Virus record (IMG/VR): IMGVR_UViG_3300023178_000149
Span: 1 to 34,609 of that record
Reading direction: 5' to 3' (one strand)
DNA: 34,609 nucleotides
Origin: a virus
Translations under genes and position numbers: made by a program
Notes under the pieces: model-generated
What the model saw: the letters and a program-made list of their open reading frames with translations, nothing else
Databases searched by the model: none
Told to the model about the DNA's origin: nothing
Shown here: in pieces, positions 1 to 20,603 of the stretch
Position numbering within the stretch: the stretch's first letter is position 1
How the letters are laid out: the number at the start of each line of letters is the position of its first letter

Positions 1-3000
1 TTGGATCACTTGCGACTGATTTTGGAGGTGCAGTAAATGCTGCACTTGGTTCAATTTCGTATGTTGACGAACTGTTAGGAGTTGCTAGTGTAAATCCTTT
101 TACAAAATGATCATATCCGTCTTCACATTTAGTTGCAACACCGTCTCCTGAACCTGCGCCTGTAGCAGTAAATATTTGACCTGCTGCAGGATTAGTTAAT
201 GAACTAATTGCTGTAAAGTCTGTTGTACCGACACTGTCAATTCTATAGATATCTCCAATTTGGAAGTTACCAGCTGTTACAACAGTTTCTGTTTCTCTAA
301 CAACTTCTGCAACTTTCGATCCTGAATTATAAGTTTTAATTAAACCGTGTTGTCCAACACCACTACCGCCTGTAATAATCAATCTCATACCTGGATATGC
401 ACTTGAAATATTACCGTCTGTTGCAGCAAGTGTTAAACTTGTAGTTGTACCAGACTGTGCTGTGTTTTGAACATTTAAATATCCACTACCACCTAGTTCG
501 CCACTTGAATCATCTAAATCAAGCACTCTAACTTGGAATGCAGAATCATCTCTAAATTCGTCGCCTTCAATAACTTCGCCGTCGCCTGGTCCAAATATAT
601 CATAAACAACTTCAGTATAGTTGTTACCAGCATGTGAATATTCAAAGCTAAACAGTTGATCGGCATCACTTTCAACATTAGCAATTGTAGCGTTGTACTG
701 TGATTTGTTGTCAACAATGCCTGTAATTGGTGTTTCAAAAGGATCAACGCCTTCTGCTACCGAACCAAAGTCACCGTATGAGTTGTTACCGTTTGTTGCA
801 CGAATACGTCCGCCTGCTTCTGCAAGATAACCAATGTGTGCATAGTAAGTAAACACAGATACAAGTTCTGCTCTACCGTTGTTAGTAATCCATGCACCAA
901 TACCGTCACTAATAACTTGTGTAAAGTCGTTTGAAACAATACTATCATTGCCACCGTTGTGTAATGCGCCGTCAATCTTTTGACCAACTGCTGCTGTACC
1001 AAATGTAGTACAGTTTTGTACGTAAGGTGATCTAGAAATAATCCAAACATCTTCGTCGTTTGGTCCCCAACCTGGATCTAGCGATGCATATGCACCTGCT
1101 GTTGGACGTTTTGTTCCGTATTCATTGTTTGGACTTAGATCGCCTGTTAGTCCTTGCATTGTTTGTAAACGCAAGCCTGTACCGTTGCGTAGGTAGTAGA
1201 AATCTTCTTCCTGTGATCCAATTACGCTGTTTACATAGTATCTTGCAGCTAGGCGTGATTTGTAAATGCCTGGATAGATGCATTGTATGCTATCTGTATA
1301 ATCTCTGCGATATTTTGCAGGGAATGTCATATCTTCTTTGATTGCATCAATGTATGTATCAATGTCACGTTTACATAGTACTCTGTTGTATTCATATACT
1401 GGTAGAACATTCATTGTACCTGTTGTACTAGGTGCAATAGTTAATTCACTACCGCCGTATGTTTCGCTTATTGTAAAGTGTGTTGCATCAACAATTTCTC
1501 TTACATAGTAAGTTGTACCTTCTACTAAAGCTGTAACACCGTCTAGTATGTCTGTAAACTTAACTTCCATACCTAGGTGTAACCAAGCTGTACTTGTAAC
1601 AGTAATTTGGTTAGATGCTATTTCAGAACTTGTATCTTTAAAGTAGTTGTCTACTGTGTTTACAAGTTCTTCTTTAATAAATTCTTTATTAAGTTCTAGC
1701 TGACGTCTTGCAGCATACAAGTTGAACTCGTCTGTTTGTACATTCGAACCTTCGTTTGAACTACCAAACAATACAGTATCAATCCATTCAAATGTTTCTT
1801 CAAGTCCAGCAATAGCAGTTGCGTTTCCGCCTACATTTGCTTTTGCTTGCTCTTTTGCATATTTAAATGAAGCTAGTGATGCTGCTTTTTGCTCATCTCT
1901 AACTGCTGCACTTGGGCGTCTTAGGTAGCTGTATGCAGCAACCTGTCCTGCAAAGTTAGAACCTAACATCCAATCATATCTTGCAGCGTCTAGAATCAAG
2001 CCAATGTCTCTCATACACTTAGCTTGGTTGTAATTAAAGTCGCTGTATGTTGTGTTAATATACTGGATTGTATCTAGTACAATTTGTGCTTGTGCGTCAT
2101 CAACTGCTGTTTTTTCAGTTTGCAGTGTACCACTTACACCTAAAGCAGCTAGATCTGGAAATACTGCTGCTGGAAGACTAGTTGTGTTTCCTGCTGTAAT
2201 TACGTCGATTGTTAATTGAAGATTATCTTCTACAATAGTAACTTCTGTTGCAGTACCTGCTGTGCCGCTTGTATCTTGTGATTCGACGTTACCAGATTGT
2301 GCTGTAACAGTATTTTCTAAAATAATGTCATCTAGTATACTCTTCATATGAGTATAAGCTGCTGCTGTTTCAGCTGTTTGGCCTGCTGGATAAGCAGTGC
2401 CATCGATGCCAAAGTATGATTGTGCAATTCTTGTTGAAGCACTTGTACCACCGTACAACAAGTCATATCTTAGAGCGTCTAGTATATAACCAACATCTCT
2501 TGCACACTTGTCTGCATCGTATGTAAGTGAAGGATATGTATTTGCTACATATGCGTTTACATCTGCTGCAATAAATGTTCTGTTTGCATTAAGTTGTGCT
2601 GCTGCGTTGATTGCATTTGCACTACTTAGGCTTGTATCAAAACTTAGTGCATCTGCTAGTCCGTCACCAGGTGTAGCACCTGTTGTGTAAATTGAACTGT
2701 TATCAAGTATGTCTAAAATTTCATCAAATGCTGCATTGCTACGTGTAATTGCTGTAGAATCTGTTAGAGCATCTTCTACTTCGCCTTTTGCAAAACGTAT
2801 TGCTCCTGAAGTTTCGGTACGCTGTTCTTGTAAATTGTAAGAGTTTGTAGGTCTTGTATAAGCAATACCGTTAAACACTGCATTATAGTTAGTGTTTAGT
2901 GCAATATCATAAGGAACATCTGTTAAAATGTTTCTTAAATCTCTACGACATGTTGCTGCATTATATCTAAAGCTACCAAAGTTTTTACTAATAAAGTCAA

Positions 3001-4036
3001 TAGCACCTTCTTTGATTGCTGTATATTCACCTTCTAGTGTGGTTGACGCTGTTGTTAAGCCAGATGCGACACCTGTTAGGTTTGGATATGTAATTGCTGG
3101 AGCATTGTCTGGTCCTAGATTAATAATTGTAATAATATCATCTACTAGGTTATCAATTTCTGTTGAAGCTGCGATTGTGCCGCCTACGCCTAAGAACTGC
3201 TCTGCAGGTCCTGTTGATAACTGCGGGCTAACTGCTGTGCCTCTACCAACAGCTTTCATTACGTCTTTTAGATATCCGTATGCTGCGATTGTTGCTGATT
3301 TTTCTTCGCTGTCAATTTGTAGGTTACCTGAACTACCATCATAATAAGCTAGGCCAGCTGTAACACTTTGCCAGTTACCTGTATAAACTAAGTCATATGC
3401 TACTGCATCAATAATAAATCCAACATCTTTTTTACAGCTTGTTCTGCTGTAGTCTAGACTTGCATAGTTTGTAGAAAGATATGCAACAATCTCTTGTTGG
3501 ATATATTCTTTGTTTGTAAGCAACAAATCAGATGTTTTTCTAAAATCTGCATCTGTAGAAGCACTGTCTGGCATATCAGTTTCTATTCTTGTCTGCAAGC
3601 TACTATCGATATTTCTTTTGATAACTTTTGCAAGTAATTCTGTTGCACTGCGTTCTGCTGGCTGACCTAAAGGAAACTGGGCTACTTGAGTTTCGTTATT
3701 GCCACTTGCTGCTGTTACAGTGGTACCGTCTACAACATCACCGATAATTTCACTTAGTCTGTTAAGAGCATGGTAACTAAATCTAAAGTCCTTTTTAGGA
3801 GTAAGTGTTGCGTTATCTGATTTTCTTGGTTGTACGTTTGTAGAACGTAGTTCGTCACCTATAATACAAGTTTCTGCAGGTACCCGTATTGGTAGCACTT
3901 CGGTATAAGTACCTGTTGCTACTTTTACCAAACTGTTTTTAATTTCTCTTGGTGGAACGTTAGTGTCCTCACCTGCTGTAACTGCATCGGTAATTATTGT
4001 ACCGAGATCTTGTATTCTTTCAAATACTGTAGCCAT
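1..4036 (-). CDS. giant virion appendage protein, repeat-rich (C-terminus beyond window)
   Basis: An uninterrupted minus-strand frame runs from an ATG at 4036 to the left edge: 1345 codons, checked codon by codon, with no stop. The ATG shares its A with the TAA of the upstream gene (TAATG), so translation is probably coupled. Residues about 25-75 look like the start of a pectate-lyase-type beta-helix (GTYTEVLPIRVP, then GDELRST). A cysteine-containing motif like CxRDxGxIxDAxxYDLxxGxN recurs at about residues 199, 361, 509, 672 and 888. After about residue 900 the protein is closely similar to the middle of the 1920-residue protein at 6092-11854 (WGPNDE, SRSPYVQ, LHNGGN, DGIGAW, GRAELVSVFTYY). 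Near the visible end is an inserted GTTDF...FTATGAGSGDG motif. A structural, adhesin-like role is inferred from the family and its neighbours. No enzyme active site is recognisable. Confidence 0.9.
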   Translation of the reverse strand, partial: MATVFERIQDLGTIITDAVTAGEDTNVPPREIKNSLVKVATGTYTEVLPIRVPAETCIIGDELRSTNVQPRKSDNATLTPKKDFRFSYHALNRLSEIIGDVVDGTTVTAASGNNETQVAQFPLGQPAERSATELLAKVIKRNIDSSLQTRIETDMPDSASTDADFRKTSDLLLTNKEYIQQEIVAYLSTNYASLDYSRTSCKKDVGFIIDAVAYDLVYTGNWQSVTAGLAYYDGSSGNLQIDSEEKSATIAAYGYLKDVMKAVGRGTAVSPQLSTGPAEQFLGVGGTIAASTEIDNLVDDIITIINLGPDNAPAITYPNLTGVASGLTTASTTLEGEYTAIKEGAIDFISKNFGSFRYNAATCRRDLRNILTDVPYDIALNTNYNAVFNGIAYTRPTNSYNLQEQRTETSGAIRFAKGEVEDALTDSTAITRSNAAFDEILDILDNSSIYTTGATPGDGLADALSFDTSLSSANAINAAAQLNANRTFIAADVNAYVANTYPSLTYDADKCARDVGYILDALRYDLLYGGTSASTRIAQSYFGIDGTAYPAGQTAETAAAYTHMKSILDDIILENTVTAQSGNVESQDTSGTAGTATEVTIVEDNLQLTIDVITAGNTTSLPAAVFPDLAALGVSGTLQTEKTAVDDAQAQIVLDTIQYINTTYSDFNYNQAKCMRDIGLILDAARYDWMLGSNFAGQVAAYSYLRRPSAAVRDEQKAASLASFKYAKEQAKANVGGNATAIAGLEETFEWIDTVLFGSSNEGSNVQTDEFNLYAARRQLELNKEFIKEELVNTVDNYFKDTSSEIASNQITVTSTAWLHLGMEVKFTDILDGVTALVEGTTYYVREIVDATHFTISETYGGSELTIAPSTTGTMNVLPVYEYNRVLCKRDIDTYIDAIKEDMTFPAKYRRDYTDSIQCIYPGIYKSRLAARYYVNSVIGSQEEDFYYLRNGTGLRLQTMQGLTGDLSPNNEYGTKRPTAGAYASLDPGWGPNDEDVWIISRSPYVQNCTTFGTAAVGQKIDGALHNGGNDSIVSNDFTQVISDGIGAWITNNGRAELVSVFTYYAHIGYLAEAGGRIRATNGNNSYGDFGSVAEGVDPFETPITGIVDNKSQYNATIANVESDADQLFSFEYSHAGNNYTEVVYDIFGPGDGEVIEGDEFRDDSAFQVRVLDLDDSSGELGGSGYLNVQNTAQSGTTTSLTLAATDGNISSAYPGMRLIITGGSGVGQHGLIKTYNSGSKVAEVVRETETVVTAGNFQIGDIYRIDSVGTTDFTAISSLTNPAAGQIFTATGAGSGDGVATKCEDGYDHFVKGFTLATPNSSSTYEIEPSAAFTAPPKSVASDP

Positions 4037-6039
4037 TAGTAGTATCCTCCGCCGTCATTGTCGCCGCCGCCGTAGCCACCACTTCCAGTTGCATCTGGAT
4101 CTTGGATACTTGCATTAACGCCCAATGCTGTTCCTGTGGAGCCGCCAGCTCCGTTATATTCTAGTGTATCAAGCCCTGTAAAGTTTACGTCAAAATACTG
4201 TGCTACTACTGCTGTTGAATTATCACCGTTAGTTGTTTGATAATTTACAGCAGGTGCCTCGCCTGCTAGTACTTTTTGTATTAGGCCAATACCGTAATTA
4301 ATAGATGCAACTGTTTCTGCTTCTTGACCTAGTGCATAAAATTTGCCTGGATCTCTTACATAACGTAGAGCTGCTTCTCTTGATTTTACATTTCCACCGT
4401 GTGTTAAGTCGTATATAAATGCATCAACAATATAACCCATGTCTCTTTCACATTTTTCTTGGTTATATGTAAATGCTGTTGTAAACGGTGCAATGTTATT
4501 TGTAACTTGATAGTCAGTCCATTCTACAATCTCTCTTGTAATAAACTGTCTATTCATTTCTAGCATACGTGCAACTGCTGGAACTCTTGTTCCTTTTTCA
4601 ATTTGCTCACATGCATATCTAATTGTTTTAAAAGGCTTATCAATTGTGCGTCCTGCGTCCGGTGAAGGCTTATCTACACCATGTGGAGCAACATAATAAA
4701 CATCATCTGTAGCACCTAAGTATGTCCACTCTGGAATGCTGTCTCCGCTTACACGTAAAACTTGTCCTTCACTACCAACGGGCAATCTTGTTGGACCCGC
4801 ACCACCGTAGTAAACCAAGTCACCTTTGGTTGTTAAAAATTCTGTTTCTGTTCCAACTGCTAAACTGTTCCAGTATGTACCAGTTGCGTCTTGATCTGGA
4901 CGAGAGTTTTCTGCGCCTATTGTTGAATAGTCATCACCTTCTGACAAGTGCGCTTGCACACAAACATAACTGCTGCTACCGTAACGTACAACATCGCCTA
5001 GAATATATTGTGTGTCATCTGTCCAGGCACCTTTCCAGTTAAGACCACTATTTAATCTTTCCCAGTAAGTAGGATTTGGTGGCTCATTGTTGTTGCTGTC
5101 TGCTATACACAAATATGTATAACCGCCGTGTCTTACAACTTCACCTGGTTTATAATCTTGGTTAGAACTATCTTCGCCCCATTCGCCTAAGAATCTAAAG
5201 TTCTCAGTAAACAACTGCCAGTTATTTGGATCATCTAATGTATCTGTTGGACGCGAGCCGCTGTGGTTTTCTAGTGCTACATACTGATTACCACCGTAGC
5301 GCACAATATCGCCTGGCTGATAAATTTTGTATGTATCCCAATCGTTTTCAAACTGGAAACCTTGTACAAACTGTGTCCAGTTACTTTCATCAGTTGCAAA
5401 GTTGTTAGTACTTGAGTGAGCGGTTGTGCAAATCCAAAGACTTGCACCGTACTTAACAACGTCATTTAGTTTATATCTAGTTGCAGAACCTTGCCATGCG
5501 CCTTTATATTCAATACCGGCATTTAAAGCAGTCCACTTGCTTTGATCTGCTTCAAGCCCTAGAGCGTCTGTTGCGGATGAAGTATGAGCAGTATTACAAA
5601 CATATGCATATCCACCATATCTAACTAAGTCATTAACTTTATATCTTGTTGTAGTTGACCAAGCACCTTTGAAATCTAATCCTTCACCGAATACATCCCA
5701 ACTTCCAATGTCTGCTTCAAGTCCAAGTGTTTCTGTTGCAGCTGATGTATGTATCGCTGTACAAACATAAAGTCTTGAACCGTACTTAACAATATCATTA
5801 AAAATGTATCTAGTGTCTACTGCCCAGTCACCTTTCCACTGGAAACCATCACTTACAATGTTCCATTTTGGAGGTGTAATATCAAAGTCTAGAAAAAAGT
5901 CTGATTGGCTTTCATGACCAATTACACAAATGTACATTTTACCGCCTACAAAGACTACATCGTCTTTGTAATACGTTGTACTAGCTGTCCAGTTACTTTT
6001 CCAGACAAACCTAATTCTACCTAGTTTAAATTCTGCCAT
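4036..6039 (-). CDS. appendage protein with seven CBM-like repeats
   Basis: This 667-residue protein starts at an ATG with GGAG six bases upstream and a late promoter just before it. Residues about 8-405 are seven tandem units of about 50-60 residues. Each has the pattern W-x-Y-x-DVV-x-YG-x-Y-x-C-x-H-S...W, which resembles type 5/12 carbohydrate-binding modules. Next come a KGDLVYYGG...LPVG...GQVL motif common in phage fibres and a YYVAPHGVD...DKPFKTIRYACE segment that begins a pectate-lyase-like fold. One copy of the CERDMGYIVDAFIYDL motif follows, then a glycine-rich tail ending GGGYY. The N-terminus (MAEFxLxR) and the seven repeats match the 1920-residue protein upstream, so the two are tandem paralogues. 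Here the beta-helix stops early and resumes in the next gene. The likely role is glycan binding by a tail fibre or appendage, inferred from the repeats. Confidence 0.9.
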   Translation of the reverse strand: MAEFKLGRIRFVWKSNWTASTTYYKDDVVFVGGKMYICVIGHESQSDFFLDFDITPPKWNIVSDGFQWKGDWAVDTRYIFNDIVKYGSRLYVCTAIHTSAATETLGLEADIGSWDVFGEGLDFKGAWSTTTRYKVNDLVRYGGYAYVCNTAHTSSATDALGLEADQSKWTALNAGIEYKGAWQGSATRYKLNDVVKYGASLWICTTAHSSTNNFATDESNWTQFVQGFQFENDWDTYKIYQPGDIVRYGGNQYVALENHSGSRPTDTLDDPNNWQLFTENFRFLGEWGEDSSNQDYKPGEVVRHGGYTYLCIADSNNNEPPNPTYWERLNSGLNWKGAWTDDTQYILGDVVRYGSSSYVCVQAHLSEGDDYSTIGAENSRPDQDATGTYWNSLAVGTETEFLTTKGDLVYYGGAGPTRLPVGSEGQVLRVSGDSIPEWTYLGATDDVYYVAPHGVDKPSPDAGRTIDKPFKTIRYACEQIEKGTRVPAVARMLEMNRQFITREIVEWTDYQVTNNIAPFTTAFTYNQEKCERDMGYIVDAFIYDLTHGGNVKSREAALRYVRDPGKFYALGQEAETVASINYGIGLIQKVLAGEAPAVNYQTTNGDNSTAVVAQYFDVNFTGLDTLEYNGAGGSTGTALGVNASIQDPDATGSGGYGGGDNDGGGYY

Positions 6040-9000: not shown

Positions 9001-11854
9001 TAATAGATGCTTGTTGATTTCTGTTGAACACTTTAGCAGTTCTTGGTACTTCGTCTGGATCAATACCTTCAGCAACAGCACCGTAACTTCCGTATGAACA
9101 GTTACCGTTGGTTGCTCTAATTACGCCACCGTTAGTTGCTAGATATCCAACTTGGTTATAATATGTAAACACAGAAACAAGTTCTGCTCTACCGTTGTAG
9201 TCAATCCACGCACCGATACCATCACTTAGTACTTGTGTATAATCGTTTGCAACCATTGATCTGTTACCGCCGTTGTGCAGTCTTCCATCTACTTTCATAC
9301 CAATACACGATGTGCCAATTGTTGTTACACCTTGTATATAAGGAGAACGTGTCATAATCCATGTGCGTTCGTCTGCCGGTCCCCAACCTGGATCTAAAGA
9401 TGTATAGGCACCTGCTGTAGGTCTTTGGAAGAATTCAAAAACACCTGGAGGATTAAGAACTCCGCTTAGACCTGTTACTGTACATTGTCTTACACCTGTT
9501 GCATCTCTACAGTAGAACATGTCTTCTAGCTGGCTACCAATTACATCATTTGTATAGTGTCTCGCTGCAAGTTTTGTTTTGTAGTTTCCTGGATATAATA
9601 TATCATATCTCAAACCTTCTACAAGTTCAATCATATCTGCATTAACTTGTGAAGTTTTGTAATCATAGTATTGTTGTACAGTTTTAACTTCGCTTGTTAA
9701 GTTTACTGGATCGCCGCCAGCTGTTAAAGATACTTTAAATGTAATGTTATCAATAATATCTTGTACATAATATCTTTTGTTTGCTTCTAGTCCACCGATT
9801 GTATCAGTAAATTTAATAGGTAAACCAACTGTTAGGTTACCAGTTGCACCAATTAGCCAATTTTCTGCTCCGTTAGAACTACTTACATCTGCTCTGTAAA
9901 CAGTGTCTAAATATGCTCTTGCTTCTGCAATAATAAAAGGTCTGTTTACACGCAAAATATCTCTAGCGTATATAACTGCTGTGTCTGTAGAAGCTGCGTT
10001 ATCACCTTCTGTGTCTGCTACTGTACCTGTACCGTTAATATTAAAGTCAAGATAATCTGTGTAAGTATCTAACAAAACTTGTACATTATTGATAGTGTTT
10101 GCATCACTTGCAGGGAACGTTACATCTGCAGGAACTGTATTTCCTTCTGTTACTTCAAAAGGATTATTAGTTAATAAGTCTGACATTATAGTTCTTAGTC
10201 TAGCAATAACTGCCTTTCTGTATTCAACATCAACAGCAAGTTCTGGATCTGCAGGTTTTGCATTAATTGTAGTAGATCTTAATTCGTCTCCCATTACCGC
10301 AGTATTTTTTGGAATTGTAATCGGAAGTGTTTCGTCAAACTTACCTGTTGATACGAAAATTTTACATAAGTTACCATTAAAGTTTGTATCAGCGTATTCA
10401 CAAGCATATCTTACAGTTCTAAAAGGAAAATGTATAGAACCTCTTAGTGGATCTGAGTCATCATCTATACCGTTTAGTGAAACATATAGCTGACGTTCAC
10501 CTTTGGTGTATTCTTCGTAACCAATTGTTTCATTATCGTCAACCATAAGTATTTGTGTTGGTTCACCAATAGGAACATTTGTTACATCAAATGTTGATCC
10601 GTCACCTTGTAATCTACGAGATAAATTGTATGTCAACAAGTCACCTTTGTTGTTCATACCGATTGCATTTCCTGCTTCTATTAGGATATCCCAGTAGTCA
10701 AATCCGCTACCGTTATCTCCTGGAAAGTTATTATCAGTTGAATAGTGTTCTTGTGTACAGTAGTATGTGTTACCGAAGAAGTTGATAATATCTCCTCTTC
10801 CGTAAGTTTGTTCTTGGTCCCAAGGACCTTTCCAGTTTTGCGTAGGAACAACACGTTCCCAATCATTGTCATCAAGATAATCTAGTGTTGAACCATCGTT
10901 AAGCGTGTTTCTTACAGCTCTATATAATTCGCCGCCTCTACGAACAAGATCACCTGTTGAATATGTTGCTGTAGCTTCCCAGTCTCCTCTAAATGCATTT
11001 GAGTGTGACACTTTTAACCATATTGGATCAGAATCAACAAAATCAGGCTTTTGTCCTGTGTTTGATTGTAGTGCAAGATATAAGTTACCACCGCTTCTAA
11101 CTAAATCACCTTCTTGATAAGGATTATCTGCGTTCCAATTGCCTTCTGAATTTTGTCCAGGAAATTCTACATTAAAAAATCTTGTGTCTATTGGTGAAGT
11201 GCCTGAATGTCCAACTGTGCATCTCCAAATTGAGCTACCGTATTTTACTAAATCATTCTTTCTATAACGTGTACCGCCTGCATAATTTCCTACAAACTGT
11301 ACTCCATCTAAAAATACTTCCCACTTACCTGCAGAATCTTCGCCAAACTCATCCTCAATACCAATTAGATTTGATTGGCTTTGATGTCCTACTAAACACT
11401 TGTAAACTATACCGTTATATTTTACTAGTGCATTTGGACCGTAGTATGTATTTTGTGCCCATTCTCCAATAAACTTGTTTCCAATACCTAGCACACTCCA
11501 GTTTGTTATTTCGTCGCCAAACGCGGCAGATACGTGAGCGCCAACACAATAATAAAGTGTACCTTCGTATAATATTACATCACCAAGTCTATAAGCTATT
11601 CCTAGACCCCATTCGCCTACAAAAGTTGACTTACCGTCTGTCATTACTTTCCATTTTGGCTGAGGCACAGGTGGTTCCGAGCCTGGTAATATAAAGTCTA
11701 AGTCAACGTAAAAGTCTGAGTCAGCTGTATGTGTTACAATACAAACATATGACTTTGCACCGTGACGTACAACATCATCTCTTTTATAACTAACGAACGG
11801 TACCCAGTCGCCGGTCCAGTTGTACTTAAATCGTTCTAGATTAAACTCTGCCAT
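6092..11854 (-). CDS. giant appendage protein: CBM-like repeats, beta-helix, beta-propeller
   Basis: This 1920-residue protein has a modular architecture. Residues about 8-410 hold seven CBM-like repeats (W...Y..GDVV..G..Y.C..H); the fifth is shortened. A KGDLL fibre motif comes next, then LYVSLNGIDDDSD...PFRTVRYACEYAD and a GDELRST turn, typical of a pectate-lyase-like beta-helix. A module with WGPADE, SRSPYIQ, LHNGGNRSM, DGIGAW and GRAELVSVFTYY follows. Residues about 1230-1530 hold five S-x-DG/GG-x-x-W Asp-box-like motifs and one divergent copy, spaced like the blades of a sialidase/BNR-type propeller. No sialidase catalytic residues are evident. The C-terminus has the FYTSTDQDGNFRAGELF motif shared with the other fibres here. 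It is the unsplit paralogue of the two genes to its left. A host-glycan-binding or adhesin role is inferred, not shown. Confidence 0.9.
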   Translation of the reverse strand: MAEFNLERFKYNWTGDWVPFVSYKRDDVVRHGAKSYVCIVTHTADSDFYVDLDFILPGSEPPVPQPKWKVMTDGKSTFVGEWGLGIAYRLGDVILYEGTLYYCVGAHVSAAFGDEITNWSVLGIGNKFIGEWAQNTYYGPNALVKYNGIVYKCLVGHQSQSNLIGIEDEFGEDSAGKWEVFLDGVQFVGNYAGGTRYRKNDLVKYGSSIWRCTVGHSGTSPIDTRFFNVEFPGQNSEGNWNADNPYQEGDLVRSGGNLYLALQSNTGQKPDFVDSDPIWLKVSHSNAFRGDWEATATYSTGDLVRRGGELYRAVRNTLNDGSTLDYLDDNDWERVVPTQNWKGPWDQEQTYGRGDIINFFGNTYYCTQEHYSTDNNFPGDNGSGFDYWDILIEAGNAIGMNNKGDLLTYNLSRRLQGDGSTFDVTNVPIGEPTQILMVDDNETIGYEEYTKGERQLYVSLNGIDDDSDPLRGSIHFPFRTVRYACEYADTNFNGNLCKIFVSTGKFDETLPITIPKNTAVMGDELRSTTINAKPADPELAVDVEYRKAVIARLRTIMSDLLTNNPFEVTEGNTVPADVTFPASDANTINNVQVLLDTYTDYLDFNINGTGTVADTEGDNAASTDTAVIYARDILRVNRPFIIAEARAYLDTVYRADVSSSNGAENWLIGATGNLTVGLPIKFTDTIGGLEANKRYYVQDIIDNITFKVSLTAGGDPVNLTSEVKTVQQYYDYKTSQVNADMIELVEGLRYDILYPGNYKTKLAARHYTNDVIGSQLEDMFYCRDATGVRQCTVTGLSGVLNPPGVFEFFQRPTAGAYTSLDPGWGPADERTWIMTRSPYIQGVTTIGTSCIGMKVDGRLHNGGNRSMVANDYTQVLSDGIGAWIDYNGRAELVSVFTYYNQVGYLATNGGVIRATNGNCSYGSYGAVAEGIDPDEVPRTAKVFNRNQQASISSVFAGEVSDFILNLEYNNAGQEYTEATVAFTGAGAQANAVFEDFRDGGLFESRLLTPPDSGKAGGSGYTLEGNNAQTGDALTITLATADDGTAEEYVGQRLLITSGVGTGQYGYIQAYNPVTKIATIYKESDDTPGWDHVVAGSDIAALLITSTTYRIEPRMTVSHPGFTATQRFLPGNGNWIDVCFGGTTESYTDLAGEFGSGETLDVPPSVARFDVDKVGKTYDVQIRSGQEGAGYAVGDIIEISGASVGGVSPDNDITITVTEISNDSTNSIVAFTSTGVGTDGRFITVMQTSNEAAYSSNGGTNWNAVELPDIGEWTACAAGNNRFVAIRSGSARMAYSLDGINWTRGFMPQNRDWIDVIYAKGKFVAIASNSEEYAVSEDGINWTENVFPDITGVGDSTATQWKAITYGKNKFLVMSQADNVIATSPTGGTGTWTVYENALPTITDWQSVAYGNNRYVAISRQNSEAAYSFDGETWVSATMPKQDGSSHHNWLKLRYAQGVFFAVGDTGNRNVGLDPTDGPTTFCATSEDGILWTGRDIPQPRQNYRSCGFGSYNGVGRWILVSQNDIGDGAAEVYTGCRAKVRANINTGVFSEVKIWDPGSGYSDENPPVISIVDNLFSVEVLLQNRIGNGVLAQPSFVFRGFGYRTSSTIGTISGDGFSDEYPIGADIVVDNLEVYPGPGAQFLFATIFDLDTDQEDDLKIYTVQQITPLGADDNGKLKAGIKLTPAIENSDNLENGTTITVREKYSQCRISGHDFLDVGTGNFVTTNYPDVYSDGAYFVAAPENEVIEESGGRVFYTSTDQDGNFRAGELFSVQQATGIVTISAEFFDLDGLSELALGGVRLGGSGAVVREFSTDPNFTEDSNNVVPTQRAIATFLQNRLSQGGSALETGTIVAGVTRIGNKGTENQYIDTTTGIQIELPRRMVIDKGSEISGTMVKQMIILGEAGSDFSIDNDFSDGSF

Positions 11855-12587: not shown

Positions 12588-15500
12588 TTATCCTAGTATC
12601 AGTACTGTTTCTACAGCCAAGTATCCTGCGTCGATTGTTGTAATAGCACCTGTTTGTCCAGCAACTGAACTCCATTGAAGTCCATCATATGCTTCGACTC
12701 TTCCGTCTGCCGTGTTAAATCTTAACATACCTATTTCAGTAAATGCTGGATCTGGTCTGTTAAGGTTATCACCAACTGGTATTACAAAACCGTTTGTGCC
12801 ATCTATTTTAACATACCCTGTACCGTTGTTTCTAAATTCTGTTATACTATCAGTAACAGTGTTTGTTATTGTATTATTATCAAACGCAAAGTTTTCTAAT
12901 AAAACTGCACCCACGCCTTGTGCTCTAAGTTCTAAGTCTGTGTCTGTTGTAACAGTAGTTATCACATTTGTATCTATTTCAATGTCATCTACGGTTAGTC
13001 TAGGCACAGCCAGTCTAGTTGCATTTAAATCTGCAACTGTTGTGCCAGAAACATTAAATCTTATAATATTGTCGTTAGCACCTTGTGTAAGTTCTGCTGT
13101 AATTGATGTGTCGCCGTCTAAGTCAACAACACCGTTTAATTGTATCCAATCGCTTCCGTCATAACCTTCAAATCTATTAAGTTGACTATTGAATCTAACT
13201 ATACCCGGTGTTTCTGTTGGACGTTGTGACGTATCGCCTACAGGTAATTTTACAGCACCAGTTGTTGTAATTTTTACAAGTCCGCTTGATGCTGCTAAGT
13301 TAATATCTGTTGTGCTAGAAATTGTTACATCATCAATTGTAAGATTGTCAATGATTATGCTGCCTGTTCCACTGGCACGTAATTCTAAATCTGCGTTGGA
13401 TGCAGTTGTTGTAATATAGTTGTTTGTAATTCTTACATCATCTATGTCTATTTGATTTGCCCACAAGTTTTTCCAAATTCTTGAAGCATTTCCTAATGTG
13501 TAAGCAGTGTTTACAGCAGGAATAATGTCACTGTCTATACCTGCAATAAATTCAATTGCATCAGTATTTTCGTCACCAATTGTAATATCGCCGCCAATTG
13601 TTACATTACCTGTTACATCTAAGTTTCCTGTAATATTAACATTATCTAATAAATTAATTTCTTGGCTTGCTGCTGCAACATTAACTGTACCTGATAAACT
13701 TTCTAATGTGTTTCCGCTTAGTCTCAAGTTTCCTGTATCAACTTGATTACCGTCTATAAATGTAGTGTTTGCGCCGTCTGTAAATGTAATACCTTGGCCT
13801 GCTGCAACATTAAAATTAGAAGTTGTAAACGTTACTGTACCTGTCTCTTGGTTTACATAAAACAAGTCACCTACTCTAAAGTCGCCTTTGTGGTCTACAG
13901 AGTTATATCTTACTTTTGCACTATCTAATTCAATTACTTCGTTTGCTTGTATAACTGTTGTAGGGTCATTAGTTACATCTTTTCCGTTGCCAATATATGC
14001 AAGGTTTTGTCCAATAGCGTAAACAATTACACCCGGACCGTTACCCCAAATACCATAGTTACCATAAACACTAGCACTACCGATCATACGCACTTCGGCG
14101 CCAAAGTCTGTGTAGTCAGTAAGTGTAAATCGTGTTGCTGTTGCGCCGCCGCTAAATCTAATATCCTGTGCGTAAACTACTTCATCTTCAAAATCTGTTG
14201 ATGCATTAGTTCCGTTAAATCTTAACAACAATACTGTTTCAGGTGTTGCATATAAATTTACAGTAGGTGCAGTAAAGTTTGCTGTATATTCAGCTTCTCC
14301 TTTGATGACTCTAAAGTCATCTATATTACCTGCAAGTGCATCGTTGCCGTCATGCTTTGCACCTATAAACAAAGGTTTTGCAGAACCGTAGTCATTGCTA
14401 TCAGTATATGTACTACCTACTTGTGTACCGTCTACAAATAGTTTTGTATTTGTACCTTCTCTTGTAAGTGCAATATGATGCCATGTTGTTGCTGTTATTG
14501 CAGCAGCCCCTGTAATTCTGTTTGCACTATCTGTATAATAATAGATGCTTCCGTTATTTGTATATACTACTGGAGCAACGTCGGTGTCAACAGATGCTCT
14601 AAAATCAAATATGTTTTGATCTGTTGCAGGAATTGCATCTGCATATACCCATGCTTCTACAGTAAAATCTCCTGTACCGAACCCAAAATCATTTTGAGGT
14701 TGTACACTAGCATAATCTCCAGTGCCATCTAAACGTAAACTTGCAGTTCCGAATTTCTTTTCTGAAGTATCAAGTTGTGCATCACCGTTGGCTGCTATTT
14801 GTTTACCTAGTCTTTCTTCAGCTGTTTCAAAACCTGTAACTTTTCCTGAAACAAATATTTTACCGTCAGCATCAATGCTGTCAATTGTACTAGTTCCTAA
14901 TACAGTTACACCGTCATAATCATAATATGTAATTGTTTCGCCAGCAACAAATGCTCCAGTTACATCTGCAACACGTAATGCTGTTTTACCAACACTTGAC
15001 TTACCGCTTACACCGTCTAAGCAATACACACCTCTGTTAGCAAAGTATGTAAAACAGTTTAACCATTCGACTCTTACACCGTTTGTAAATGTTACTGCAT
15101 CAACACCTGGGGTAATAAACGTAACTGCGTGGAACAAAATGCTAACTTCGTTTGAGTTAGGAGTTGCAACAGAGCCATCAAAATAACCGCCCTTACCTGC
15201 GTCACCTGCATCAAATCCTCTCGGATCGTCTGCTGTTGTTACTGTTCCGCTTGTAATTACTGTTATGTTTCTTAGATAAGGTGAACGTGTAGTTACTTCA
15301 AAGCCAGGTGCATATTTAAATGCATACCCTGTATTGTTTCCGACATCAAAGTTAAATCCAGTGATAGTTACTTCTTCAATAGTTGTTTCACCGTTTAGTA
15401 AAAATGCATCTTGTGTAGATGTTCCTGCTGTAGGTTGAATAGTAACACTTCTTAAACTGTGTCCGTGTACAGTTACGCCTACTGGTATTGTAAGTGGAAA

Positions 15501-16319
15501 TATTTCTTCGTATACACCAGGAAACAAATAAACAGTGTCGCCTGCTGTAGCAAGTGTAAGTGCATGTTTAAGTGTAGCAACTGGATCTTGTGGATGTGTT
15601 CCTGTAAGTGTATCATCGCCGTTTTCTGCTACATAAATTGTGCTTCCTGGACGTAGTGCTAAATCAATTCCATCTACTGTAAGATCAGTTGTAGCAACAC
15701 TTGTTGCATTAAATTGATTTACATAAACAGCACTCCATTGTGCGCCGCCTGAGTCAGGGTCGCTACCTAAACTATAAGTATTATCTGCATCTGGTATAAT
15801 ATCACTTGTTACTTCTGCATTAAACTCAATATAATCTGTGTTTGCATCACCGATTGTAATTTCGCCATCAGCAGTAATACTACCAGTTGCATATATGTTA
15901 CCTTGTACAGATAAGTTAGAATGTATTTCTACTTTACCCGTTCCGTTTGGTCTAAATTCGATTGCTGCGTTTGAATTTTGTGTGCTGATTACATTGTTTT
16001 CTAATGTAATCTCATCAATATCTAATTTGTTTTGATAAACAACATTGTCACCGGTACCAATTGTTAGTGTACCGTTTGTTGTTGAAATTGTATCACCAGA
16101 GAATTGAACGCCGTTAAAGTCAGCGAAACTAGTAATTTCTACTGTTGGTGCTCTAACTATGCCGGTAACATCTAAGTCGTATTCAGGAGAGCTATTATTC
16201 ACACCTATACGGTTGTTATTGACATCTAGATAAAGTAAGTCTGTCTCAAAAGCGAGGTCTACTCCATCACGGAGCAAGTTTGCCTTTAAGAGCGGACCAG
16301 ATATTCGACCAACTGCCAT
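12588..16319 (-). CDS. long fibre protein with beta-helix and inserted LamG domain
   Basis: This 1243-residue protein begins MAVGRISGPLLKANL, with a good ribosome binding site (GAGGAG) upstream. Residues about 225-360 form a pectate-lyase-like beta-helix start (STIYVAENGDDTLTGTHPQDP, then VYLFPGVYEE). At about 515-705 lies a LamG/concanavalin-like jelly roll (FGTASLRLDGTGDY, GDFTVEAWVYAD, WHHIALTREG, NIDDFRVIKG). A repeated module follows: NLRLSGNTL, TGNLDVTGNV, YTLGNASRIWKNLW, NYITTTASNADLELR. The C-terminus carries GMLRFNT...VEAYDG..W and ends LILG. Most of the protein aligns with the 1379-residue neighbour (16464-20603), which lacks the LamG domain, so the lectin-like fold was gained or lost as a unit. 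The likely role is a tail or whisker fibre with a carbohydrate-binding module. Confidence 0.9.
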   Translation of the reverse strand: MAVGRISGPLLKANLLRDGVDLAFETDLLYLDVNNNRIGVNNSSPEYDLDVTGIVRAPTVEITSFADFNGVQFSGDTISTTNGTLTIGTGDNVVYQNKLDIDEITLENNVISTQNSNAAIEFRPNGTGKVEIHSNLSVQGNIYATGSITADGEITIGDANTDYIEFNAEVTSDIIPDADNTYSLGSDPDSGGAQWSAVYVNQFNATSVATTDLTVDGIDLALRPGSTIYVAENGDDTLTGTHPQDPVATLKHALTLATAGDTVYLFPGVYEEIFPLTIPVGVTVHGHSLRSVTIQPTAGTSTQDAFLLNGETTIEEVTITGFNFDVGNNTGYAFKYAPGFEVTTRSPYLRNITVITSGTVTTADDPRGFDAGDAGKGGYFDGSVATPNSNEVSILFHAVTFITPGVDAVTFTNGVRVEWLNCFTYFANRGVYCLDGVSGKSSVGKTALRVADVTGAFVAGETITYYDYDGVTVLGTSTIDSIDADGKIFVSGKVTGFETAEERLGKQIAANGDAQLDTSEKKFGTASLRLDGTGDYASVQPQNDFGFGTGDFTVEAWVYADAIPATDQNIFDFRASVDTDVAPVVYTNNGSIYYYTDSANRITGAAAITATTWHHIALTREGTNTKLFVDGTQVGSTYTDSNDYGSAKPLFIGAKHDGNDALAGNIDDFRVIKGEAEYTANFTAPTVNLYATPETVLLLRFNGTNASTDFEDEVVYAQDIRFSGGATATRFTLTDYTDFGAEVRMIGSASVYGNYGIWGNGPGVIVYAIGQNLAYIGNGKDVTNDPTTVIQANEVIELDSAKVRYNSVDHKGDFRVGDLFYVNQETGTVTFTTSNFNVAAGQGITFTDGANTTFIDGNQVDTGNLRLSGNTLESLSGTVNVAAASQEINLLDNVNITGNLDVTGNVTIGGDITIGDENTDAIEFIAGIDSDIIPAVNTAYTLGNASRIWKNLWANQIDIDDVRITNNYITTTASNADLELRASGTGSIIIDNLTIDDVTISSTTDINLAASSGLVKITTTGAVKLPVGDTSQRPTETPGIVRFNSQLNRFEGYDGSDWIQLNGVVDLDGDTSITAELTQGANDNIIRFNVSGTTVADLNATRLAVPRLTVDDIEIDTNVITTVTTDTDLELRAQGVGAVLLENFAFDNNTITNTVTDSITEFRNNGTGYVKIDGTNGFVIPVGDNLNRPDPAFTEIGMLRFNTADGRVEAYDGLQWSSVAGQTGAITTIDAGYLAVETVLILG

Positions 16320-16463: not shown

Positions 16464-19400
16464 TTACCCTAGGATAAGAGACCAAACGTTAGAAAAGTCT
16501 TCCATAACTTCATTTGTAACTGGGTCTTCTTCTAAACCAGTACTTGCAATCCACTGTGTTCCGTTATACACTTCTTCTTGCTTTGTACCAATGTTAAATC
16601 TTATAGCACCTTCTACAGGAGCAATAGCATCTTCTACTGATATTCTTAGTGCAAGATCTGTCAATCCAAAATTGTCATTATCGTCTGATGTAAGAACTGT
16701 TTCGTGAACTCTAAACTTAACTGCACTAGTGTCAATAATAACTTCAGCACGTTCTGCATCAATATTAAATCGCAATTCCCACCAGTTACCGATTCCTACG
16801 CTATCAAACGATATTGCACTACTAGGAGACACTAATACATCAAATCCTGTTTTAAAATCTACTTCAGTTAGAGCTGCTGAAATATCTACATTTGTAAGAT
16901 TTGAACTAGGTATCCATTGATCTGTATCGCCGATATCTTCAGTTTCGCCTATTCTATAAGTAACTCCATTTATAGTGACATCTACGTATTCGTTGTTATC
17001 TCCAAAGTCGCCTCTAAATTCAACTGATGTAATTGTTGCACTATCTGGTTCAAAGCCTAAAAGGTCTTCAATATTAAGTCTAAAACTTTGATTTGGACTA
17101 TTATCACTGCTACCAAATTCTGATGACTGTATAGTTCCACTAGCTGCTGGAACATTCTCACCAAATGCGTCTAAACCTAGTAGTATTTCAAAGTCTGCCC
17201 AATCCTTTGAATCATCTCCAGATGCAATAGTTCCTAAAGTTGTCCAGTTTGTATTATCTGTTGTAAACTGTAATTCTAAAGTTTCTAATTGTTCCGGTCT
17301 CTCTCCGCCATTTGTTCCGCTACCTACAATAACTTTACCACTAAAGCCGCCGCCGCGCCAGTTGGATAAATCGTATGTTGTTGTTTCAATACTTGTATTT
17401 GATGATCCTGTAAACAAGTAGTGCGGATATGTAGCAAACCCATCATTATTTGTTGATCCAATGCCTGCAGATTGTACAGTTACACCTCCTGCAGAAGTTG
17501 CAAAAATATCTGAATTAGAAACTGTTCCTGCTACAATAGTAGCTGTACTTACATCGTCAATAGCAACAGAACCTGTAGTTGGTAGTGCTACACCGTCAGT
17601 TCCTGTAAATTTAACAAATCCTCTGTCGGTACTATAAATTGTCATTGCACCTGCGTTGTTATCGTTTGTGAATATGTTGTCTCTTACATATTCTTGACCG
17701 TTTAGCAATATAGATTCGTTTGTTGTCCTACGTAATTCTAAATCAGCATTACTATCAACAGTAGTAATCACGTTATCGTTAATAAGAATACTATCGCTTT
17801 GTAGTCCTACAACTTCTAAACCCATTGCGTTAACTTGTCCTACTGGATTGTTGTTAACTACAAAATTTAAAGTGTTATTAGTTTTATGTGCAGTTACATT
17901 TGTTCTTTGATTATCAGAGTATACACCTCTAAAGGTTATACGTGCATCGCCGTAACCTTCAAATAAACCAGTTTGTGTATTAAATCTAAGTCCACCTGAA
18001 AGGTCTTCATCATCGTTTGTTCTAAGTTGTTGTGCTGTAGTGCCGTTTGGTAATACAAATCCAGTAGCTTGAATGTCTAAAAAGTCTCCACCGATATCTA
18101 AGTTTAGATGAGAATCATCAAGTGTAGAATCAGCGCCAACAATTGGATATGTGCTTATTGTATTTTCTTTAAAAGTGATATTTTCTAGTGCTACAACACC
18201 TGCACTATTGCTTAACAGTTCTAAATTTGCATTGCTATCTTTTGTTGTAATTATATTATCAAATATTTGTATACCATCTATTTCTGCTTTGTCAAGATAT
18301 ACATCTTTCCATCTGTATGTAGAATTACCCAAAGTATAAGCAGTGTCATCATCTGGTACAAAATTTTGGTTAATGTCAACATTAAATGTTACAGTATCTT
18401 GGAACTGATTACCAAAAGTTATTAATTGACCATCAATTGTTACATCACCGGTGATATCTAAATTTTGTAATATGTTAACGTCATTTTGGAAATTGATATT
18501 TCCGTCAATTGAATCAACGTTTACATCGCCTGATAAAGAAAATAGTGTATTACCCGCTAAACGTAAATTTCCAACATCTATTTTTTCAGAAGAAAGTATA
18601 GTTCTGCTGTTTGTTCCTTCAAGGGTTAAACTGTTTAGCCCATCAAAGTTAATGTTTGAAGTGTCTACACTTGTATTTCCTGTTTGGAAGTTAACAAAGA
18701 AAGCTTCACCAACTCTAAAATTACCGTTTTGTTCTGTACTACTGTAATAAATTTTGCCGCTGTTTAATTGTTTTGCAATTTGCGTATAGTCTGTAAGTGT
18801 TTCGTCGTTTTCTACATTTTTTCCAGAACCTATATAAGCAAAATTATGATTGATTAGATACATTAAACAGTCTGCGCCGTCTGCTTCTGCACCAACATTG
18901 CCGTAAACGTTTGCACTGCCTATCGAACGTATTTCAGCACCGTAGTTAACTGTACTACCGTCTAAACCAACTCTACCAGTTACACCGTTAACAGCATACA
19001 ATCCTCTGTTTGCAAAATATGTAAAGGAATTTAACCATTCAACTCTACAGCCATTTGTCATTGTAACAGCATCTACACCAGGTGTAATAAATGTTGCTGC
19101 ATGAAACAGCATTGCAGCGTTTCTACTAATAGCTGTTAGTTCACTACCATCTATATATGCACCGCGACCTGCATCGCCTTCGTTAAAGCCTTTAGGATCA
19201 TCAACAGTAACAACACTTCCTCTAGTAATTACAGTTACGTTTCTTACATAAGGTGATCTACTTGTAACAGTCCCGCCGGATTTAAATCTAAAAGCATGTC
19301 CTTTATTCGCTACACTATCATAATAAAAGTTTTTAATAGTTACATTTTCTACTCCAGATTCTCCGTCTAGTAAAAATACATCTTCGTATTCGCTACCAGA

Positions 19401-20603
19401 TTCTGGAATAATAACAACATTTCTTAAATCGTCACCTCTAACAGTTACATTTGGTGGAAGAATAAGAGGTAAAACTTCTTGATATGTTCCTGCCATTATA
19501 GAAACTGTTACCGGGCCGGCGATACTTGCATCACATTTTGCAAGTGCTCCGGCTATTGTACGCATCGGAGCTCTTGGATGATCACCAGTATTATTATCAT
19601 CTCCGTTAGTATCAACATAAAACGTATTTCCCATACGTTTTGCCATGCTAATACCATTAATAATTAAATCACTTACAACAATTGCACTCTCTGTTTCAAT
19701 TGAATCTGACCAGATTTGATTCCATCGTCTGCCTTCTCTACCTAGTCTAAATGCATTATTAACATCAGGTAAAATATCACTACGAATTTCATCTCCAAAT
19801 GCAATAGTATCTTCAGTTATGTCATCACCAAATGTAAGATTTCCAGTAAATTGTATTTTGCCGCCAGCATCTATAGCATCTGGATATGTTCCTTGTAGTG
19901 TAAGTAAATCAGGTATAAAATGATCTTTCATATGAGTTAGGTTTTGATCACCTAAACTTCTCCAACGAGCAAATGCAGTTACATCACTTGCTGTTATAGA
20001 ACCGTCATTATTAATATCACCGTATTGAAATCCGTTGCCTGCAACACTTGTTAAGAACGGATATAAAAATCCCGATGTGTCTCCGCTTACAATTTTTTGA
20101 ACTTCTTCGATTATAATGTCAAAGTCGGGTTGTGTTACTGCCTCTGCACTAATGTCACCGTAAACATCTACGTTAGCATAACTTCTAACTCTTTCGTTTG
20201 TGCCAACTTGTATTATTATATCTTGATCTGTTTGACGAGACATAATTTTGTTGTCATCGATTTCTATTCCTGAAACTGCAATGCCACTTGAACGTATATT
20301 TCCCGCTGAACTTATTGTAGTTGTAGGACCTATATTATTTGTAATATTTCCATCAATTGTAAAATTAGGAAGTTCAGCTACATCACTATTCCAATGGGTT
20401 GATCTTATTTGTGTAGGAGCCTCAACATCTCTTGCTGGGTTCTCCATATTAACGCCAATACGACTTGTAAGCGGATCGATGTGCAATACTGCTGTATCCG
20501 CTCCGGTATTTTTAAAGTTTAAGAAATCTTTACCTGCGTTATTTTCATTGATTTCGATGTTGGCTTTTAAAACACCACCACCTATTCTACCAACTTGTGA
20601 CAT
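16464..20603 (-). CDS. long fibre protein with dockerin-like motif and beta-helix
   Basis: This 1379-residue protein begins MSQVGRIGGGVLKANIEIN, with an AAGGAAG ribosome binding site and a perfect TATAAATA promoter upstream. Around residues 193-218 is a dockerin/EF-hand-like calcium loop (GDINNDGSITASDVTAFARW). Residues about 323-520 form a pectate-lyase-like beta-helix (FYVDTNGDDNNTGDHPRAP, then VTVRGDDLRNV). A FANRGLYAVNG..GAEIRSIGSANVYGN segment and the NLRLAGNTL / LDITGDVTIDG / YTLGNSTYRWKDVYLD module are shared with the 1243-residue paralogue. Residues about 1040-1330 look like one or two beta-sandwich domains. The end carries GAIRFNIGTKQEEVYNGTQW and LILG. It is probably a long tail or whisker-like fibre. 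Which T4 fibre, if any, it replaces cannot be told from sequence. Confidence 0.9.
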   Translation of the reverse strand: MSQVGRIGGGVLKANIEINENNAGKDFLNFKNTGADTAVLHIDPLTSRIGVNMENPARDVEAPTQIRSTHWNSDVAELPNFTIDGNITNNIGPTTTISSAGNIRSSGIAVSGIEIDDNKIMSRQTDQDIIIQVGTNERVRSYANVDVYGDISAEAVTQPDFDIIIEEVQKIVSGDTSGFLYPFLTSVAGNGFQYGDINNDGSITASDVTAFARWRSLGDQNLTHMKDHFIPDLLTLQGTYPDAIDAGGKIQFTGNLTFGDDITEDTIAFGDEIRSDILPDVNNAFRLGREGRRWNQIWSDSIETESAIVVSDLIINGISMAKRMGNTFYVDTNGDDNNTGDHPRAPMRTIAGALAKCDASIAGPVTVSIMAGTYQEVLPLILPPNVTVRGDDLRNVVIIPESGSEYEDVFLLDGESGVENVTIKNFYYDSVANKGHAFRFKSGGTVTSRSPYVRNVTVITRGSVVTVDDPKGFNEGDAGRGAYIDGSELTAISRNAAMLFHAATFITPGVDAVTMTNGCRVEWLNSFTYFANRGLYAVNGVTGRVGLDGSTVNYGAEIRSIGSANVYGNVGAEADGADCLMYLINHNFAYIGSGKNVENDETLTDYTQIAKQLNSGKIYYSSTEQNGNFRVGEAFFVNFQTGNTSVDTSNINFDGLNSLTLEGTNSRTILSSEKIDVGNLRLAGNTLFSLSGDVNVDSIDGNINFQNDVNILQNLDITGDVTIDGQLITFGNQFQDTVTFNVDINQNFVPDDDTAYTLGNSTYRWKDVYLDKAEIDGIQIFDNIITTKDSNANLELLSNSAGVVALENITFKENTISTYPIVGADSTLDDSHLNLDIGGDFLDIQATGFVLPNGTTAQQLRTNDDEDLSGGLRFNTQTGLFEGYGDARITFRGVYSDNQRTNVTAHKTNNTLNFVVNNNPVGQVNAMGLEVVGLQSDSILINDNVITTVDSNADLELRRTTNESILLNGQEYVRDNIFTNDNNAGAMTIYSTDRGFVKFTGTDGVALPTTGSVAIDDVSTATIVAGTVSNSDIFATSAGGVTVQSAGIGSTNNDGFATYPHYLFTGSSNTSIETTTYDLSNWRGGGFSGKVIVGSGTNGGERPEQLETLELQFTTDNTNWTTLGTIASGDDSKDWADFEILLGLDAFGENVPAASGTIQSSEFGSSDNSPNQSFRLNIEDLLGFEPDSATITSVEFRGDFGDNNEYVDVTINGVTYRIGETEDIGDTDQWIPSSNLTNVDISAALTEVDFKTGFDVLVSPSSAISFDSVGIGNWWELRFNIDAERAEVIIDTSAVKFRVHETVLTSDDNDNFGLTDLALRISVEDAIAPVEGAIRFNIGTKQEEVYNGTQWIASTGLEEDPVTNEVMEDFSNVWSLILG

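What the first reader, a model, noticed from the sequence alone, without database searches (positions are those of the whole stretch)
1..6039. Giant adhesin split into two translationally coupled genes
The 1920-residue protein runs without interruption from seven CBM-like repeats through PFRTVRYACE to GDELRST. In its tandem paralogue the first half of this beta-helix ends one gene, after an added CxRDxGYIxDA unit and a Gly-rich tail. The second half (GTYTEVLPI...GDELRST) begins the next gene, with a TAATG junction. A once-single chain has become two, possibly to allow a swappable tip or a two-chain complex.
Basis: partly seen in the sequence, partly recalled or inferred. Interest (0 to 1): 0.6.

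Follow-up and report, generated by a model that had tools for sequence, protein, structure and literature searches.

The report
Phage tail fibre split into two
A giant tail-fibre protein of a marine virus of bacteria is made as two separate chains cut inside a folded domain, so the two must rejoin, and that domain unexpectedly resembles the light-harvesting pigment proteins of cyanobacteria.

Summary
The split is real. P0002 (4036-6039) and P0003 (from 4036; cut by the window edge, 2089 aa in a near-identical contig) meet at GGAGGATACTACTAATG. The same junction recurs in about 36 IMG/VR contigs, down to ~55% identity, so it is not a sequencing error. More relatives carry one fused gene (39 against 21 in a non-redundant tree), and the split state nests inside the fused state.

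P0001 is a paralogue. Fused orthologues already contain the CxRDxGYIxDA unit at this site, so that unit was not added with the split. The break falls inside this helical unit, before its last helix, which is now the P0003 N-terminus; the first cap of the beta-helix stays on P0002. The two chains should therefore stay together as one domain. A swappable tip is not supported.

Unexpectedly, the CxRD unit matches phycobiliproteins: by fold (Z 13-14), by profile (all 20 PDB sequence hits are phycocyanin alpha) and by the bilin-attachment CxRD motif. Six copies lie in P0002/P0003, and others in cyanophage fibres. Bilin binding is untested, and no bilin genes were found in 20 relatives.

The parts
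4036..6039 (-). P0002, upstream chain, 667 aa: CBM5/12 beads, beta-helix cap, CxRD unit without its last helix, Gly-rich tail
4855..6039 (-). seven CBM5/12-like beads (residues 1-395)
   Evidence: Pfam PF02839 1.6e-35, 7 stretches; Foldseek hits to Agrobacterium phage 7-7-1 tail fibres and chitin deacetylase CBMs
4597..4698 (-). N-cap of the beta-helix (YYVAPHGVDKP..PFKTIRYACEQ), residues 448-481
   Evidence: alignment with P0001 and fused orthologues; low pLDDT in P0002 alone
4189..4587 (-). CxRD unit, helices equivalent to phycobiliprotein A/B-G (residues 485-617)
4441..4452 (-). C530-E-R-D533, equivalent to the bilin-attachment CxRD motif
4039..4188 (-). new C-terminal tail, EYNG...GGGDNDGGGYY, absent from fused orthologues
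4045..4050 (-). GGAGGA, Shine-Dalgarno of P0003 written in the Gly codons of the P0002 tail
4034..4038 (-). TAATG stop/start overlap
2..4036 (-). P0003, downstream chain (first 1345 of 2089 aa; runs off the window)
3971..4030 (-). last helix of the CxRD unit (TVFERIQDLGTIITDAVTAG), now at the N-terminus of P0003
3839..3928 (-). first beta-helix rungs KVATGTYTEVLPI..GDELRST
3077..3544 (-). CxRD unit 2 (C201KKD)
2627..3058 (-). CxRD unit 3 (C363RRD)
2177..2614 (-). CxRD unit 4 (C511ARDVGYILDALRYDLLYGG)
   Evidence: PF00502 5.4e-5, above gathering score
1712..2131 (-). CxRD unit 5 (C674MRD)
1232..1396 (-). degenerate unit 6 (C888KRD)
707..1279 (-). beta-helix body, the part most alike in P0001 and P0003
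6092..11854 (-). P0001, unsplit paralogue, 1920 aa, without the CxRD unit at the split site
10274..10486 (-). uninterrupted N-cap to GDELRST stretch of P0001 (residues 457-527)

Best explanation
P0002 and P0003 are the two halves of one tail-fibre protein of a T4-like marine myovirus, separated by gene fission. SHOWN: fused and split orthologues exist, the split is the derived state, and the break is at one place, between the last two helices of a helical CxRD unit that sits between the cap and first rung of a beta-helix. SHOWN: stop and start overlap or lie within a few bases, with a strong Shine-Dalgarno in the last Gly codons of P0002. INFERRED: ribosomes that finish P0002 reinitiate on P0003, so the chains are made side by side in similar amounts. 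INFERRED: P0003 returns the missing last helix and the beta-helix rungs to P0002, giving one non-covalent domain with CBM beads at one end and the P0003 beta-helix and long C-terminal part at the other. PREDICTED from structure and profiles: the divided unit has a phycobiliprotein (globin-like) fold, cut between helices G and H; it acts at least as a structural spacer. Whether it binds a bilin is open.
For: Same junction in independent contigs of three identity levels and about 36 contigs in all. Split nested among fused; 19 split rows form one starred clade, and a single origin of all 21 is not rejected, p-AU 0.22. Fused chains read ..NGDNSTAVVEQYTDVNLDVESVLTEIQGLTKIITDAITAG..KVATGKYYEVLPI; split ones read ..NGDNSTAVVEQYF..tail* / MATIFETITELSGIVTDAITAG..KVSTGKYYEVLPI. 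Purifying selection on both sides of the junction: dN/dS about 0.06 for P0002 440-618 and about 0.2 for P0003 1-50. Cap, unit and last helix are as conserved in split as in fused pairs. In a fused homologue the cap helix, unit, last helix and first rungs are predicted together at pLDDT about 72-94, and the unit including its last helix matches phycobiliprotein residues 31-177 at Z 13-14. P0002 alone has a poorly predicted cap (pLDDT under 50 at 441-485) and matches mostly up to about residue 162-168, Z 9-10. GGAGG precedes 25 of 26 genuine junctions.
Against: No virion protein data and no complex model (only single chains could be folded). The pLDDT contrast compares different proteins with different alignments. 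Reinitiation is inferred from layout. Whole-alignment trees place the window's own pair apart from the 19 other split rows, so two origins, or recombination, are possible. Similarity to phycobiliproteins outside CxRDxGY is weak in sequence: masking the motif removes the profile score.
Confidence: 0.72

Rival explanations
1. Sequencing or assembly error, or a recent nonsense change, has broken one ORF.
For: Such breaks do occur in the sample: L085 has an N-bearing frameshift and L109 a TGA at another position, next to intact near-copies.
Against: The 4036 junction is the same in independent metagenomes at ~100%, 81% and ~55% identity, with a conserved Shine-Dalgarno and a new conserved tail.
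Confidence: 0.01
2. A programmed frameshift or readthrough makes a fused chain as well.
For: The one-base overlap would allow a slip within the last ~18 bases; in L033 and L041 start and stop are in frame.
Against: The frame relation between the two genes takes all three values across split relatives (TAATG, TAAAATG, TAAAGATG, TAATCAATG, TAAAAGATG), and no conserved slippery heptamer was seen at the junctions.
Confidence: 0.05
3. The two chains work apart: P0002 as a separate carbohydrate-binding fibre, P0003 as its own fibre with a substitute cap, giving independent or exchangeable parts.
For: Each chain has its own conserved end; the new Gly-rich tail (up to 11 Gly in relatives) looks like a free C-terminus.
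Against: The cut leaves incomplete folds on both sides, and the orphan pieces (cap on P0002, last helix on P0003) remain as conserved as in fused relatives.
Confidence: 0.2
4. The split was made by a mobile element (homing endonuclease or intron) that inserted and was later lost, as in genes-in-pieces enzymes of T4-like phages. This concerns origin and is compatible with the best explanation of how the pair works.
For: Known route in T4-like phages: Aeh1 nrdA, T4 gene 60, phage 25 gene 43 (PMC2988022). It would explain the extra tail and the new start.
Against: No gene or intron lies between the halves in any split contig examined.
Confidence: 0.2

Closest known systems
PHROG 9851 tail fibre proteins of marine T4-like myoviruses (e.g. 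P-SSM2, S-CAM1, Pelagibacter phage Mosig)
   Same: CBM5/12 beads, YVxxxGxD..PF(K/R)TIRYACE cap, beta-helix body; P0001-P0003 all match
   Different: Annotated isolates carry a single chain; the 71-aa P0003 N-terminus matched only five isolate records, and only from residue 37, so no isolate split at this site was found
Genes-in-pieces of T4-like phages: Aeh1 nrdA, phage 25 gene 43A/43B, T4 topoisomerase gene 60 (PMC2988022)
   Same: One protein made as two chains that must reassemble
   Different: Those are enzymes split by an endonuclease gene or an untranslated spacer; this is a structural fibre, with no inserted gene and with overlapping stop and start
T4 long tail fibre gp34-gp35-gp36-gp37 (PMC5537660)
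   Same: A fibre built from several gene products in series
   Different: T4 parts join at domain borders (own knowledge); here the cut is inside one fold
Phycobiliproteins (PF00502) and bilin biosynthesis-associated globins (PMC10151467)
   Same: Predicted fold of the CxRD unit and the CxRD motif at the equivalent place
   Different: Embedded repeats in a phage fibre, extra conserved Asp at +9 and +14, little similarity outside the motif, bilin binding untested

Membership tests
PHROG 9851 tail fibre | significant match of all three proteins | tested here: met
   E 7e-145, 4e-116, 3e-37
PHROG 9851 tail fibre | presence in the virion | not testable with these tools
   no proteome of this phage
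Genes-in-pieces (gene fission) | orthologues exist as one continuous gene | tested here: met
   39 fused rows against 21 split
Genes-in-pieces (gene fission) | split state derived | tested here: met
   split nested in fused; two changes on the tree, one origin not rejected, p-AU 0.22; the root is a midpoint
Genes-in-pieces by homing endonuclease | endonuclease or intron between the halves | tested here: not met
   halves adjacent in every split contig examined
Genes-in-pieces (gene fission) | chains assemble into one functional unit | not testable with these tools
   inferred from the position of the cut and conservation
Phycobiliprotein family PF00502 | Pfam model reaches its gathering score | tested here: inconclusive
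   met once in P0003 (23.6 against 22.2 bits); single units fall below it (best 17.2 bits; 7 of 44 match at E up to 1)
Phycobiliprotein family PF00502 | globin-like phycobiliprotein fold | tested here: met
   predicted models only: Z 13-14 over residues 90-250, and Z 9-10 for P0002
Phycobiliprotein family PF00502 | CxRD motif at the start of helix E | tested here: met
   aligned by HMM and hhalign; Cys kept in 420 of 513 units found with a Cys-masked profile
Phycobiliprotein family PF00502 | covalently bound bilin | not testable with these tools
   needs protein; heme oxygenase, bilin reductase and CpeT families absent from 20 related records, many of them fragments

The most novel reading that the evidence does not exclude
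Tail fibres of marine T4-like phages carry arrays of true phycobiliprotein-family domains that bind bilins at the CxRD cysteine; in cyanophages the phage CpeT lyase, whose gene lies just upstream of the CxRD-bearing fibre gene, would load them. In the window's lineage one such domain is assembled from two chains.
Probability: 0.1. Interest if true: 0.92.

Novelty: new variant of a known kind. Interest (0 to 1): 0.6.

Why it matters
It is a clean case of fibre gene fission with fused and split relatives side by side, so how a divided fold assembles can be tested in a structural protein rather than an enzyme. The divided unit links a widespread but unexplained repeat of marine phage fibres to the phycobiliprotein fold and its bilin-attachment motif. 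Phages carry bilin genes whose purpose is debated, so whether phage fibres are themselves bilin carriers becomes a direct experiment.

Tried and rejected
Sequencing error: rejected. Frameshift or readthrough: frame not conserved. P0001 as the unsplit ancestor: rejected, it lacks the unit present in fused orthologues. Mobile element between the halves: none seen. Bilin machinery in the window's relatives: no heme oxygenase, bilin reductase or CpeT in 20 records. CpeT next to the fibre as proof of a shared function: weakened by P-HM2, where cpeT sits at the same genome position beside a YadA-domain gene and not beside the CxRD-bearing gp7. Literature: 3 papers hold phage + tail fiber + phycobilisome + phycobiliprotein; of the one looked into (PMC10665884), the passages concern a lyase gene for the host's phycobilisome. 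None hold phage + tail fiber + globin + bilin. Only open-licence papers are held. Other Pfam hits to single units look like chance.
Full report
WHAT THE WINDOW IS. The 34.6-kb record is a virus fragment from IMG/VR with a T4-like structural cluster read on the minus strand: portal-, protease-, scaffold- and major-capsid-like genes, the capsid protein at 66-71% identity to its best phage relatives, then a series of long beta-helix proteins. P0001-P0003 match tail-fibre families, above all PHROG 9851.

THE OBSERVATION. P0001 (1920 aa), P0002 (667 aa) and P0003 (1345 aa in the window) are as described. P0002 1-478 aligns with P0001 1-486, and P0003 aligns with P0001 from residue 499 on. The genes meet at GGAGGATACTACTAATGGCTACA, where the last A of TAA is the first A of ATG. 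P0003 is complete (2089 aa) in a near-identical contig.

THE SPLIT IS REAL AND OLD. The same junction occurs in L005-L007 (~100%), L008-L011 (about 81%) and L012 (about 55%), from different metagenomes, and in about 36 contigs in all. Of 26 genuine junctions listed, 21 are TAATG; the others are TAAAATG, TAAAGATG (two), TAATCAATG and TAAAAGATG. All three frame relations occur, so neither frameshift nor readthrough is a conserved mechanism. GGAGG lies in the last Gly codons in 25 of 26. Two other broken copies (L085, L109) are breaks of another kind at other positions.

FUSED RELATIVES. Most relatives found through P0002 carry one long chain (about 1900-3100 aa) covering P0002 and P0003. In these the order is: cap (YYVA..PFKTIRYACEQ), CxRD unit, last helix (TEIxxLxKIITDAITAG), first rung (KVATGxYYEVLPI), GDELRST. 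Thus the unit was there before the split. In split forms P0002 ends after NGDNSTAVVxQYF with a new tail (in most, a (V/L)xYE/D-type stretch followed by Gly), and P0003 starts with MATxFExIxxLxxIxTDAxTAG. In a tree of 60 rows the split state sits inside the fused state. The 19 other split rows form one starred clade, and the window's pair (L005, L008) lies apart. One clade for all split rows is not rejected (p-AU 0.22), and the tree of the region just after the cut puts all split rows in one starred set with a single fused row. I take one origin, perhaps with later recombination, as most likely.

HOW IT WORKS. No direct data exist, so this is inference from anatomy. In the model of a fused homologue (L089) the cap helix, the unit, the last helix and the first rungs are predicted together with pLDDT of about 72-94. 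The unit, with its last helix, spans one domain (model 90-250). The split therefore leaves an incomplete domain on P0002 and an orphan helix on P0003. Both pieces remain as conserved as in fused pairs of like divergence and are under purifying selection. In the P0002 model the cap falls below pLDDT 50, though this compares different alignments. The simplest reading is an obligate two-chain domain, with coupled translation placing both chains together. A swappable tip would need a cleaner border.

THE CxRD UNIT. Foldseek against the PDB gives mostly phycobiliproteins at the top for the fused model, but at weak E-values (best 0.04), and phycobiliproteins also appear for P0002 below its CBM hits. 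VIA-align gives Z 13-14 over about 137 residues for the fused homologue and Z 9-10 for P0002, with all 50 listed rows of the latter being phycobiliproteins or bilin-type fluorescent proteins. By the tool's own note, helical models can reach such Z by chance (best 14, rank 50 about 6, up to 13); here rank 50 is still 12.8 and 8.8. By sequence, a profile of 57 units finds 20 PDB sequences at E up to 1, all phycocyanin alpha chains, best E 0.0011 (a smaller profile gave 16 of 17). hhalign of units against CpcA/CpcB scores 38.9; 40 column-shuffled controls, run with the larger profile (true score 37.6), reached at most 18.2, and the reversed profile 14.1. Masking CxRDxGY drops the score to 10.8, in the same register. 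A CpcA/CpcB profile finds these units in phage ORFs (full-sequence E to 1e-7). With the Cys masked in the profile, 420 of 513 units still have Cys there. Published work treats CXRD as a motif of phycobiliproteins and related bilin-binding globins, absent from the BBAG-2 group (PMC10151467). The cut thus lies between helices G and H of a phycobiliprotein-like fold. The helix letters are from my own knowledge.

BILIN OR NOT. Units with CxRD also occur in cyanophage giant fibres (S-PM2, Syn1, S-CAM1, S-RIM32, S-H9-2, ACG-2014j). In these six genomes a CpeT-family gene lies within about 0.3-1.8 kb upstream of that fibre gene. P-HM2 is a counter-example: cpeT is at the same genome position but its CxRD protein (gp7) is elsewhere. 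In 20 records of the window's relatives no heme oxygenase, bilin reductase or CpeT was found, although these are fragments. Bilin binding is therefore a hypothesis, weaker for the window's lineage than for cyanophages.

VERDICT. The split is a conserved, derived fission of a fibre gene inside a domain. The kind (a phage protein made in two pieces) is known; a structural fibre cut between two helices of a phycobiliprotein-like unit, with a Shine-Dalgarno written in its Gly tail, is a new variant.

Noticed in passing
window 2-4036 and 4189-4587; L283, L285-L290: CxRD repeats of marine phage fibres resemble phycobiliprotein domains and keep the bilin-attachment motif.
   Followed up: partly
L283 5489-6013 and 6304-18495; L285 6821-7348 and 8797-20136; L287 6904-7443 and 8149-20202: In six cyanophage isolates a CpeT-like bilin lyase gene lies just upstream of the giant fibre gene that bears CxRD units; P-HM2 keeps cpeT at that position beside other genes.
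   Followed up: partly
P0001 about residues 1230-1500; P0003 full length (L005) about 1450-1700: Repeats of the type W(T/S)..YGN.(R/K)F(V/I)A(V/I)....A(Y/M)S.DG..W, BNR/propeller-like, also in Stenotrophomonas and Xanthomonas giant phages.
   Followed up: no
window 16464-20603, residues 194-210: Dockerin-like stretch DINNDGSITASDVTAFARW, weak Pfam hit E 0.07.
   Followed up: no
window 12588-16319, residues 531-673: Laminin-G/concanavalin-like domain (PF13385 2e-23) inside a baseplate-wedge-like beta-helix protein.
   Followed up: no
window 28307: A second one-base stop/start overlap TAATG between two other genes, so this layout is not special to the split.
   Followed up: no
L005 15425-18336; L012 15808-19165: Downstream of P0003 lies a set of similar 300-400 aa proteins ending in GHLVG/GYLIG or VIVRY, differing between the two lineages; perhaps variable fibre tips.
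   Followed up: no
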